Assembly: GCA_021323635.1 (NCBI GenBank)
Contig: JAJPKQ010000035.1
Span: forward strand, 1-42,718
DNA length: 42,718 nucleotides
Reading direction: 5' to 3'
Origin: a bacterium
GTDB lineage: Bacteria; Actinomycetota; Thermoleophilia; Solirubrobacterales; Solirubrobacteraceae
Below are positions 4,063 through 42,611 of this stretch, in pieces. Numbering within the stretch: the first letter of the stretch is position 1; the number at the start of each line of letters is the position of its first letter. The notes beneath the pieces were generated by a model. The model was not told the DNA's origin, made no database searches, and saw nothing but the letters and a program-made list of their open reading frames with translations. The position numbers were made by a program, and so were the translations under genes.

Positions 4063-4067
4063 CGAAG

Positions 4068-4156
4068 GGCGCTCGCGACTGGCGCAGTCAAGGTGGGTGC
4101 AACCACCGGGGAGCGGGCGTGCCTCATGGCTTCGACAGCAGCCGCGCGCCTGGGCA
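4068..4156 (+). promoter_or_regulatory. ZTP (pfl) riboswitch controlling glyA
   Basis: The sequence holds the conserved blocks of the ZTP/ZMP riboswitch in order: GACTGGCG (4077-4084), a GGTGG/CCACC hairpin directly followed by CGGGGAGCG, and the 3' block GCGCGCCTGGGCA (4144-4156). GGCG at 4081-4084 and CGCC at 4147-4150 can form the ligand-site pseudoknot. The class senses the purine intermediates ZTP/ZMP (AICAR phosphates) that build up when 10-formyl-THF is short, and glyA is one of its typical targets, because SHMT restores one-carbon units. The aptamer ends 28 nt before the ATG with no intrinsic terminator, so translational control is likely. GGCGCTC at 4068-4074 is complementary to GAGCGCC at 4177-4183, which overlaps the Shine-Dalgarno. 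Confidence 0.9.
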
Positions 4157-4184
4157 CAAGCAACGACCAAGCCAAGGAGCGCCG

Positions 4185-40427: not shown

Positions 40428-40904
40428 ATGACCAAGCGGCACAGCAGCGCGCGCGGGGGCAACGTGGCGACCAACCGCTCAGCGGGCTTTCGCTACGAGC
40501 TGCTCGACCGCTTCGAGTGCGGGATCGTGCTCGTGGGCAGCGAGGTCAAGTCGCTGCGCACCGGTGGCGCCCAGCTGAAGGACTCCTATGCGGTGATCAG
40601 CGACGGCGAGCTCTGGCTGCACGGCGTTCACATACCGCCCTATGCTCCGGCTGCGCGCGACAACCACGATCCGGAGCGCCCGCGCAAGCTGCTGCTGCAC
40701 CGCTACGAGCTCGAGCGCATAGCGGTCCGCGTGAAGGAGCGGGGGCTGACGCTCGTGCCAACCAGGATCTACTTTGCCGGCAACCGCGCAAAGGTCGAGA
40801 TTGCGCTTGCCCGGGGCAAGGCCGCCCACGATAAGCGCGAGGCGATCCGCGAGCGCGAGATGCGGCGCGACATCGAGCGCGGCCTGCGCGAAGCAAGGCG
40901 CTGA
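40428..40904 (+). CDS. smpB: SsrA-binding protein SmpB
   Basis: 158 residues, full length. Characteristic segments: NRSAGFRYELLDRFECGIVLVGSEVKSLRTGGAQLKDSYA (oligonucleotide-binding barrel that grips the tmRNA elbow), HIPPYAPAARDNHDPERPRKLLLHRYEL, and a C-terminal basic helix DKREAIREREMRRDIERGL that mimics mRNA in the empty A-site channel. It carries tmRNA into stalled ribosomes. The frame is open upstream inside the exoribonuclease gene, but MTKRHSSARGGNVATNR at 40428 is the family start. ssrA itself is 1.3 kb downstream, beyond an opposing M50 gene. Confidence 0.96.
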   Translation: MTKRHSSARGGNVATNRSAGFRYELLDRFECGIVLVGSEVKSLRTGGAQLKDSYAVISDGELWLHGVHIPPYAPAARDNHDPERPRKLLLHRYELERIAVRVKERGLTLVPTRIYFAGNRAKVEIALARGKAAHDKREAIREREMRRDIERGLREARR

Positions 40905-40959: not shown

Positions 40960-41907
40960 GCTGCTGAAGGAGTGCCCTTCGGCAAAGAGCACGTGCGTTG
41001 CGCCCATGCCGAGCACCAGCAGCACGAGCAATGCGATGTAGGTTGCGCCGATCAGCGTGCGCCCGCCCGGCGAGACGGCGTAGTAGGCGCGCACAGCCTC
41101 GCCACCCCGGGTGCGCTCGCGCCAGCGCCTGTAGAGGTCAAAGCCGGCGATGATCACGATCAGCAGCAGGATCGGGTTGGAGTCGGTGATCAGCAGCGCG
41201 ATCAGGATGCCAAAGCCCGCGAACCACATCCACGGCCACATCGCCGCTACCGCTCTGCCGCCGTCGAGCGGCGTGACCGGGATCAGGTTGAAGAGGTTGA
41301 TCAAGAAGCCGAGATAGGCGGCGGCAAGCAGCAGCGGGCTGTGCAAGAGGGAGCCTGCGAGCGCGACCGCGCCGGCGCCCAGTGAGCCGAGGATCGGCCC
41401 CGCCAGGCCCACGCGGGCCTCTGCCGCGGCGTCCTCGCCAAGCGAGCGGGCGGCGATGAAGGCGCCGAGAAAGGGGACGAACATGGGCGCGCTGGCGTGC
41501 AGCCCCTCGCGGCGCAGCTGGATGACGTGGCCGATCTCGTGGATGAAGAGCAGCGCCACGAAGAGCGCCGCAAGCGGCCAGCCGAAGAAGAGAGCGTATG
41601 CCGCCACTGAGACCAGCGCGGTCCCGGCCGTGGCAAGCAGCTTGAGGTTGGGCAGCGCGATCAGCAGCGCCTTGATCGCCGCAAAGAACTTCGCCGCCAC
41701 CGCTGCGAGCGCCGCGAGCGCGCTTGCCGGGCCTCTGCGCACGCCGCGACGTGGCGGCGCCTGATCGCCGGCCACAGCGTCGATCGGCGCGAGCGCCGGC
41801 TGGCGATCGGCGATGGGATGCGCGCCGATCGCAAGCCCGTTGCTCTCTGTGAGCTCCTGGGGCCTGGCCAGCGGGGGGCTGTAGAGGTTGGGGCGATGGT
41901 CGTCCAT
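40954..41907 (-). CDS. M50 site-2-protease-like membrane metalloprotease
   Basis: 317 residues with about seven hydrophobic segments. The zinc motif HEIGH (His123, Glu124, His127) lies in a helix, and the third-ligand motif NLIPVTPLDGGRAVAA (N-x-x-P-x-x-P-LDGG) lies in a later one, so it should cut substrates within the membrane. There is no PDZ or CBS domain. The substrate is unknown; relatives cut anti-sigma factors or other membrane proteins. The frame stays open upstream to 42240, but that region holds a structured RNA and the tmRNA promoter, so I chose the ATG at 41907, preceded by TGAGG. Confidence 0.88.
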   Translation of the reverse strand: MDDHRPNLYSPPLARPQELTESNGLAIGAHPIADRQPALAPIDAVAGDQAPPRRGVRRGPASALAALAAVAAKFFAAIKALLIALPNLKLLATAGTALVSVAAYALFFGWPLAALFVALLFIHEIGHVIQLRREGLHASAPMFVPFLGAFIAARSLGEDAAAEARVGLAGPILGSLGAGAVALAGSLLHSPLLLAAAYLGFLINLFNLIPVTPLDGGRAVAAMWPWMWFAGFGILIALLITDSNPILLLIVIIAGFDLYRRWRERTRGGEAVRAYYAVSPGGRTLIGATYIALLVLLVLGMGATHVLFAEGHSFSSL

Positions 41908-42010
41908 GGCCTCATTCTCGCACGCGCCATTAGCGCTCTCTAAGGATCGCTCCCGCTTGCGCAGCCTCCTGCATTTGTCGCAATCTGCGGGGTCGGGTCG
42001 GCGCGCGCCC

Positions 42011-42038
42011 TTGCAATCCGGATGCGAAGGCGTATGCT
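42011..42038 (+). promoter_or_regulatory. sigma-70-type promoter of the structured RNA
   Basis: TTGCAA (42011-42016) and TATGCT (42033-42038) separated by 16 nt, the best-matched promoter in the window. Initiation about 7 nt downstream (42045-42047) coincides with the first paired base of the RNA helix that follows. Confidence 0.6.
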
Positions 42039-42045
42039 GGATGAC

Positions 42046-42156
42046 AGACGCGGCAGGGGCCGCAGAAGAGCGAGGCCAAGAGGTGTAAGGCCGCGCCACC
42101 GGAGCGAAGGGCATCGCCCTTCCCGGTCCTCGCAGCGGTCCCGGTCGCGTCTTTAT
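42046..42156 (+). ncRNA. candidate structured non-coding RNA, no known family recognised
   Basis: The two ends pair into a long helix: 42047-42063 with 42135-42151, 17 positions with one A/G mismatch and two G-U pairs. An asymmetric internal loop (AGAAGA opposite A) leads to a second helix, 42070-42077 with 42125-42133, with one bulged U. Inside are two hairpins: GAAGGGC/GCCCTTC with an ATC loop (42106-42122) and a weaker GGTG/CACC one (42082-42100). TTTAT follows the last paired base, and a promoter precedes the first. The G-U pairs would be A-C mismatches on the other strand, so the RNA runs on the plus strand. It lacks the SRP RNA GGAA/AGCAG core and the 6S central bubble. It contains no convincing coding frame. 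Confidence 0.6.
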
Positions 42157-42228
42157 GCACCCCGGCAGTGCGTTGCGCGGTTGCCGTGCGGCAGCCGCTC
42201 TCTGCTCGCCGGCTCCACGGGCGCGTGC

Positions 42229-42234
42229 TACAAT
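42229..42234 (+). promoter_or_regulatory. extended -10 promoter element of ssrA
   Basis: TACAAT preceded by TGC (extended -10). Transcription would start near 42241, a few nt before the mature tmRNA 5' end at 42249, consistent with RNase P trimming. No strong -35 is visible. Confidence 0.55.
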
Positions 42235-42248
42235 GAGCACATATCCCT

Positions 42249-42606
42249 GGGGACGACAGGCTTCGACGGGGCCGGTTCGTGGGGATGGTTGCGAGTCGAG
42301 GTTCCGGGTGGCCTCGTAAAACCCCCGGAAAAGAACAAGTGCGAGCTCTCACGAGCACGCCCTCGCCGCCTAGCATCTAGGTAGAGCGAGGTCTCGGCCC
42401 CCGCAGGCCTGCGGCGGGGATCCGGGATCAGAAAGCAGGCTCGCCCGGTGAGGATTGCTCCCGCCGATCCGGGGACCTTCAGGGGAGCTGGTCCTTCGCA
42501 ACCCGGCCGGCGAGGCGAGCGGGGGACGAGATCAGAGCGCCGGCTACGCTCGTAGAAGCCATCACTCATGCGGCCTCGGACGCGGGTTCGACTCCCGCCG
42601 TCTCCA
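42249..42606 (+). ncRNA. ssrA: transfer-messenger RNA (tmRNA)
   Basis: The 5' GGGGACG pairs with CGTCTCC at the 3' end (7 bp, one G-U) to make the acceptor stem, with A as discriminator. GCGGG-TTCGACT-CCCGC is the T arm. The resume region GGCCTCGTAAAA...AACAAGT leads into the tag frame GCG AGC TCT CAC GAG CAC GCC CTC GCC GCC TAG (42341-42373), giving ASSHEHALAA, which ends in the protease-recognised ALAA. Several pseudoknot-length complementary stretches fill 42374-42560. The genome reads CCT after the discriminator, so the CCA end must be added enzymatically. It rescues stalled ribosomes with SmpB. One-piece form. Confidence 0.95.
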
Positions 42607-42611
42607 CCTCG

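What the first reader, a model, noticed from the sequence alone, without database searches (positions are those of the whole stretch)
42046..42156. Unrecognised structured RNA with its own promoter beside ssrA
A 105-nt region whose ends pair over 17 positions (16 pairs counting two G-U), followed by a second 8-bp helix with a bulged U and two inner hairpins. It is bracketed by a TTGCAA-N16-TATGCT promoter whose predicted start falls on the first helix base, and by TTTAT right after the last. The G-U pairs only work on the plus strand. I cannot fit it to SRP RNA, 6S, RNase P, Y-like RNA or any riboswitch I know. It sits among smpB, an RNase R-like gene and ssrA, so a role in ribosome rescue or RNA quality control is conceivable.
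Basis: partly seen in the sequence, partly recalled or inferred. Interest (0 to 1): 0.78.

Follow-up and report, generated by a model that had tools for sequence, protein, structure and literature searches.

The report
New pseudoknotted RNA family beside ssrA
The stretch next to the ssrA gene encodes a small non-coding RNA of unknown function, a folded, knotted molecule made from its own promoter, which belongs to a previously undescribed RNA family confined to one order of soil actinobacteria (Solirubrobacterales).

Summary
Window 42046-42151 (+) encodes a stand-alone structured RNA. It matches no Rfam 15 family, even at E<=10. It is one member of a conserved family: 79 homologues were aligned, 105-138 nt long, usually 1-3 copies per genome, found only in the order Solirubrobacterales (68 of 232 genomes). 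A tree-based covariation test supports ten pairs at E<0.05: six in P1, one in P2, one in P3 and two in a pseudoknot. The pseudoknot joins the P2 loop (GRGR) to the P3/P1 junction (YCYC) and is the strongest signal among all column pairs. An alignment-free test finds it in 64 of 64 sequences, against 0 of 20,000 permutations. Every copy has its own sigma-70-like promoter, and nearly all carry a conserved ~20-nt element upstream. In family f1 the RNA keeps its place between smpB and ssrA, but extra copies and f2 copies do not. Most likely it is a regulated, trans-acting, protein-binding RNA. The partner is unknown and expression is unproven.

The parts
42046..42151 (+). The structured RNA (106 nt): P1, P2, P3 three-way junction with a pseudoknot
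   Evidence: Homologues, covariance model hits 77-78 bits, E 1e-13, covariation; no Rfam family
42046..42063 (+). P1 5' strand AGACGCGGCAGGGGCCGC
   Evidence: Six P1 pairs covary at E<0.05; the outer five pairs GACGC/GCGUC show only single A-U to G-U or C-G to U-G changes in 75 distinct sequences
42135..42152 (+). P1 3' strand GCGGTCCCGGTCGCGTC(T)
   Evidence: sequence
42067..42073 (+). Invariant junction AGAGCGA: J1/2, the 5' GCG of P2 and the bulged A
   Evidence: AGAGCG invariant in 75 of 75 distinct sequences, bulged A in 74 of 75
42070..42077 (+). P2 5' strand GCGaGGCC
   Evidence: P2 7/7 pairs in 73 of 78 homologues; G-C/A-U covariation E=0.023; also AGCC/GGCU, GAUC/GAUC, GACC/GGUC versions
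42089..42096 (+). P2 3' strand GGCCgCGC
42080..42083 (+). Pseudoknot 5' strand GAGG (P2 loop)
   Evidence: Pairs with 42128-42131; GAGG/CCUC, GGGG/CCCC, GGGA/UCCC, GAGA/UCUC, AGGG/CCCU in homologues; top covarying pair
42084..42088 (+). UGUAA; consensus UGNRA in 73 of 79 homologues, T-loop-like (name from general knowledge)
42099..42126 (+). P3 hairpin, variable in length and sequence
   Evidence: Single-sequence fold; base pair of P3 covaries, E=0.028
42128..42131 (+). Pseudoknot 3' strand CCUC (J3/1)
42152..42156 (+). TTTAT after P1: T-rich stretch, possible intrinsic terminator together with P1
   Evidence: T-rich stretch follows P1 in most homologues listed; termination itself is inferred
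42011..42038 (+). Promoter TTGCAA-N16-TATGCT; homologues mostly TTGMNN-N17/18-TANNTT at the same distance
   Evidence: a TTG-type -35 and a -10-like box found upstream of all 74 distinct copies
41972..41994 (+). Dedicated upstream element (consensus TTTTCnCGCARAATGCGGGATC), probable regulator or activator site near -63
   Evidence: 61 of 63 high-scoring sites in 2.08 Mb of strand sequence precede this RNA; 16 pattern hits against 1 in the reversed control over 13 genomes
42249..42609 (+). ssrA (tmRNA), neighbour with its own -10 element; probably a separate unit
40428..40904 (+). smpB, neighbour conserved upstream of the RNA in family f1
   Evidence: ORF (named by inspection); SmpB (PF01668) in relatives

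Best explanation
This is a new family of stand-alone, structured non-coding RNAs of the order Solirubrobacterales. Shown by computation: a promoter directly in front, a compact three-way-junction fold (P1-P2-P3) locked by a pseudoknot between the P2 loop and the P3/P1 junction, a stable inherited position with some duplication, and a conserved element upstream of the promoter. Inferred: the RNA acts in trans as a folded protein-binding RNA. The invariant junction (AGAGCGA, the bulged A, the UGNRA loop) would be the recognition surface, and a dedicated DNA-binding regulator would control its amount. It would work in the manner of 6S/Ms1-type or other RNP-forming RNAs rather than by antisense pairing or as a riboswitch. 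The protein partner is not identified.
For: Family and fold. Stand-alone transcription unit: promoter at fixed distance in all copies; upstream element; nearest downstream feature is an ORF on the opposite strand in 26 of 75 copies, and ssrA with its own -10 in 21. Not a messenger: length varies 105-138 nt in steps that are not multiples of three. Actinobacteria generally lack Hfq (general knowledge).
Against: No transcript has been seen. No partner protein is linked by neighbourhood. The distribution is patchy: 68 of 232 genomes in the order have it, and several complete relatives lack it, so it is not a universal housekeeping RNA. The T-tracts are short, so termination at P1 is uncertain. 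17 of 75 copies have a same-strand ORF as nearest downstream feature, so a cis effect in some copies is not excluded.
Confidence: 0.6

Rival explanations
1. The RNA works with trans-translation: it binds SmpB, tmRNA or stalled ribosomes and tunes ribosome rescue, which explains its place between smpB and ssrA.
For: 27 of 27 copies with a tmRNA in view have it downstream on the same strand, 33-136 nt away in the window's genus except one tandem copy at 422 nt; 20 of 21 resolvable f1 genomes have the RNA 0.1-8.1 kb downstream of smpB on the same strand while the genes in between change.
Against: Second and third copies in the same genomes are elsewhere; none of the eight f2 genomes has smpB on the same contig as the RNA, although smpB is present; ssrA occurs in many relatives without the RNA; ssrA has its own promoter. 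Slow decay of an inherited neighbourhood explains the linkage equally well.
Confidence: 0.15
2. A regulatory RNA that base-pairs with mRNAs or 16S rRNA, using the GAGGUG loop (complementary to the anti-Shine-Dalgarno CACCUC) or the UUCCUC strand (complementary to Shine-Dalgarno sequences).
For: In most copies the loop reads GAGGUG and the junction CCUC.
Against: Both strands change together to GGGG/CCCC, GGGA/UCCC, GAGA/UCUC, AGGG/CCCU and, in distant members, CGAG/CUCG and ACGG/CCGU. This keeps the internal pairing and weakens or breaks complementarity to rRNA, so the segments are conserved for the pseudoknot.
Confidence: 0.1
3. A cis-acting element (riboswitch or leader) for the downstream gene.
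For: Compact pseudoknotted junction with invariant bases, as in ligand-binding aptamers; in 17 of 75 copies the nearest downstream feature is a same-strand ORF.
Against: No conserved downstream gene; the downstream feature is on the opposite strand in 26 of 75 copies or is ssrA with its own -10; P1 closes the whole RNA and is followed by a T-rich stretch.
Confidence: 0.08
4. A divergent member of a known RNA family (SRP RNA, 6S, Y/YrlA RNA, RNase P, permuted tmRNA).
For: ARAGORN reports a permuted tmRNA starting at 42040; SRP and 6S models find nothing in this genome.
Against: No Rfam match at E<=10 in the window copy other than a meaningless antisense hit at E 7.4, nor at E<=1 over the RNA in six diverse relatives. 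SRP RNA is a separate gene in 54 of 61 relatives, including many with this RNA. The permuted-tmRNA call is not repeated in any other homologue locus and overlaps the real ssrA.
Confidence: 0.04

Closest known systems
6S RNA (RF00013) and mycobacterial Ms1
   Same: Stand-alone RNA from its own promoter, ends closed by a long helix (general knowledge)
   Different: Half to a third of the length; three-way junction with pseudoknot instead of a rod with a bubble; no 6S match in the genome, though that model also misses several control genomes
Bacterial small SRP RNA (RF00169)
   Same: About 100 nt, closed by its ends
   Different: Separate SRP RNA gene exists in 54 of 61 relatives; no hit of the SRP model to this RNA
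tmRNA (RF00023)
   Same: Genomic neighbour, often less than 140 nt away
   Different: Separate gene; the tmRNA model does not match this RNA
Junction riboswitches with loop-junction pseudoknots (for example THF or SAM-I class; recalled from general knowledge)
   Same: Helical junction locked by pairing of a loop with a junction strand, invariant junction bases
   Different: Stand-alone gene with own promoter and no conserved downstream gene; no Rfam match

Membership tests
Structured non-coding RNA gene | Compensatory base changes beyond phylogenetic expectation | tested here: met
   10 predicted pairs at E<0.05 under a tree-based null; top pair of all column pairs lies in the pseudoknot. The null and the anchoring were my own implementation, not R-scape.
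Structured non-coding RNA gene | Own promoter and end signal | tested here: met
   Promoter-like boxes at fixed distance in all distinct copies; T-rich stretch after P1. Sequence evidence only.
Structured non-coding RNA gene | Transcript of the expected size | not testable with these tools
   No expression data available
Any Rfam 15 family | Covariance-model match at gathering score | tested here: not met
Bacterial SRP RNA | Match to RF00169 | tested here: not met
   Separate SRP gene in relatives; no Rfam hit of the RNA
6S RNA | Match to RF00013 | tested here: not met
   no hit of the RNA. The 6S model rings in only 5 of 14 controls, so sensitivity is limited.
6S RNA / Ms1 | Binds RNA polymerase | not testable with these tools
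   Needs co-immunoprecipitation
Permuted tmRNA | tRNA-like domain conserved in homologues | tested here: not met
   Permuted call only in the window copy; Rfam reports the ordinary tmRNA
Riboswitch | Conserved position in front of related genes | tested here: not met
   Downstream features differ and are often on the opposite strand
Trans-translation component | Linked to smpB/ssrA wherever it occurs | tested here: not met
   Linked in f1, not in f2 or in extra copies

The most novel reading that the evidence does not exclude
The RNA is the core of a new ribonucleoprotein regulator of a central machine (RNA polymerase, or SmpB/ribosome rescue) that arose in Solirubrobacterales, is switched by a dedicated transcription factor through the conserved upstream element, and recognises its partner through a pseudoknotted junction not seen in other RNA families.
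Probability: 0.2. Interest if true: 0.85.

Novelty: new variant of a known kind. Interest (0 to 1): 0.62.

Why it matters
It adds an RNA family with clear compensatory evidence, including a covarying pseudoknot, to a class of soil bacteria for which a search of open-access literature found no described regulatory RNA. The alignment, model and conserved promoter element make the next step, finding its protein partner and regulator, directly testable in cultured Solirubrobacter strains that carry a copy.

Tried and rejected
Rfam at permissive thresholds on the window and on six relatives: nothing over the RNA. Candidate homologues outside the order (Kutzneria L053, an alphaproteobacterial MAG L046, a viral contig L172) score 24-25 bits, look like coding sequence by eye and lack the features, so I take them as chance matches. 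Plasmids and phages: no match. Search for divergent copies in the 8 kb in front of ssrA in 18 relatives without a hit, filters off: only noise. Anti-Shine-Dalgarno idea: rejected because both strands covary away from it. Co-transcription with ssrA: disfavoured, since ssrA keeps its own -10-like box even where the gap is only 31 nt. Regulon of the upstream element: a simplified pattern gave a few other sites without the same promoter spacing, so no regulon could be named. Literature searches for ncRNA in Solirubrobacter, Conexibacter or Thermoleophilia found nothing relevant, and two recent surveys of novel structured ncRNAs do not mention these taxa in their main text. A few rows of the first anchoring had a one-base phase error in the pseudoknot, which was corrected before the covariation test.

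Full report
What was checked. The window lies in a 2.6-Mb genome assembly of the order Solirubrobacterales. The order is inferred from the record titles of homologues; its lineage is Actinomycetota, Thermoleophilia. The stretch folds at -64.3 kcal/mol, z = -5.2, with 0 of 200 shuffles as stable. Rfam 15 reports only the neighbouring tmRNA and, far away, a ZTP riboswitch. A permissive scan of 41900-42250 gives one meaningless antisense hit at E = 7.4.

Homologues. A nucleotide search of 60 relatives found clear copies (E down to 3e-18) in most genomes of the genus, often two or three per genome, and weaker ones in other genera. An exact core pattern in 84,980 species genomes gave 52 stretches, almost all from Solirubrobacterales, Solirubrobacteraceae or Thermoleophilaceae records, including Solirubrobacter soli and S. 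phytolaccae. A covariance model from 36 sequences found 68 of 232 genomes in the order. A second model from 64 sequences found 53 of 399 genomes in the class, all in two families (f1, f2) of the order, and none outside the order in 396 genomes of the phylum. The three off-taxon pattern hits look like chance: they score 24-25 bits in what reads as coding sequence.

Structure. Aligned homologues (79 copies, A3) give a common fold. P1 closes the molecule. J1/2 and the start of P2 read AGAGCGA and are almost invariant. P2 is GCGaGGCC/GGCCgCGC, with versions AGCC/GGCU, GAUC/GAUC and GACC/GGUC. The P2 loop holds GRGR followed by UGNRA in 73 of 79 copies. P3 is a hairpin of variable length. The P3/P1 junction holds YCYC. 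The loop and junction strands pair. In 64 of 64 sequences a run of at least four Watson-Crick pairs exists between the P2 loop and the junction. Swapping junctions among sequences never reached the native mean in 20,000 permutations; that test ignores relatedness. Two still more distant members carry their own matched pair, CGAG/CUCG (L166) and ACGG/CCGU with a roughly 75-nt insertion in the P2 loop (L167; sequences, pairing read by eye).

Covariation with phylogeny. I placed the substitutions of each tree branch at random columns (FastTree, Fitch parsimony, 200-300 null alignments), a scheme modelled on R-scape's null but my own implementation. The best of all 3,486 column pairs is the pseudoknot pair A-U (59) / G-C (16), never reached in 200 nulls. 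Within the predicted structure ten pairs pass E<0.05: six in P1, one in P2, one in P3, two in the pseudoknot. Limits: the two pseudoknot strands were anchored by rule and in one row (L129) by hand; L166 was left out; the tree rests on the RNA itself; for the strongest pair parsimony counts only one branch with a double change, for the second pseudoknot pair four.

GCGAGG/CCUCGC is complete in 1 of 78 homologues, whereas P2 has all seven pairs in 73 of 78. The window's MFE therefore shows a lineage-specific alternative.

Gene organisation. All 74 distinct copies have a TTG-type -35 box, a 16-19 nt spacer and a -10-like box 5-8 nt before the RNA. Nearly all also share an element TTTTCnCGCARAATGCGGGATC at a nearly fixed distance in front of the -35 box (67 of 74 within one base), with a palindromic centre CGCA-n3-TGCG. 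In 2.08 Mb of strand sequence, 61 of 63 strong sites precede this RNA; the loci scanned were mostly collected because they hold the RNA, so this is not a genome-wide rate. A whole-genome scan of 13 genomes with a simplified pattern gave 16 sites against 1 for the reversed control, several of them at this RNA; the others lack the promoter spacing. I infer a dedicated regulator.

Neighbourhood. In the window the order is rnr-like gene, smpB, a zinc-protease-like gene on the other strand, the RNA, ssrA (protein gene names by inspection). In every one of 27 copies with a tmRNA in view, it lies downstream on the same strand, typically 33-136 nt away in the genus and 0.6-1.8 kb elsewhere in f1. Comparing the smpB coordinates with those of the RNA, 20 of 21 f1 genomes with both on one contig have the RNA 0.1-8.1 kb downstream of smpB on the same strand; the exception, G202, is 394 kb away. 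In the eight f2 genomes smpB is on another contig. Extra copies in f1 genomes lie elsewhere. ssrA keeps its own -10-like element. The link is therefore ancestral to f1 and may be mere inheritance; a role in ribosome rescue stays possible but unproven. Eighteen relatives without a hit show no diverged copy in the 8 kb in front of ssrA.

Mechanism. The data argue for a stand-alone gene acting in trans: own promoter, own upstream element, no conserved downstream gene, and the nearest downstream feature on the opposite strand in 26 of 75 copies (ORF prediction was crude). They argue against pairing with mRNA or rRNA, because the conserved purine and pyrimidine tracts covary with each other. Invariant junction bases and a UGNRA loop in a fixed pseudoknotted frame are what one expects of a protein- or ligand-binding surface. 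I commit to a protein-binding regulatory RNA (0.6 for the whole statement; the family and the fold themselves I hold at about 0.95). The partner, the expression and the phenotype are unknown.

Novelty. Nothing in Rfam 15, in the papers searched, or in the plasmid and phage collections describes it. Supplementary files of the surveys and most subscription papers were not searchable. As a kind, stand-alone structured bacterial RNAs are known; this family, with its knotted junction, is new among those tested. I label it a new variant of a known kind because a new mechanism has not been shown.

Noticed in passing
window 4065-4162 (+): ZMP/ZTP riboswitch (RF01750), 53.5 bits, above its gathering score.
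   Followed up: no
window 42040-42464 (+): ARAGORN reports a permuted tmRNA overlapping the new RNA and the real ssrA; it is not repeated in any other homologous locus and is an artefact.
   Followed up: yes
L167 (G183), about 2760-2951: A distant member carries a roughly 75-nt structured insertion inside the P2 loop, yet keeps a matched pseudoknot (ACGG/CCGU).
   Followed up: partly
L126 (G104), 1516-2797; L142 (G149), 2508-2856; L007 (G011), 1020-1480: Tandem two- or three-fold copies of the RNA, each with its own promoter and upstream element; the two L142 copies are nearly identical in the RNA but differ in the promoter region.
   Followed up: partly
family f2 loci L128, L129, L160-L162: In f2 the RNA seems to have its own recurring neighbourhood (HAD-like, FxsA-like and pyridoxamine-oxidase-like ORFs by eye), different from the smpB-ssrA site of f1.
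   Followed up: no
G000, whole genome: The small SRP RNA model finds nothing in the window's own assembly, although 54 of 61 genomes searched have it; probably an assembly gap or a divergent copy.
   Followed up: no
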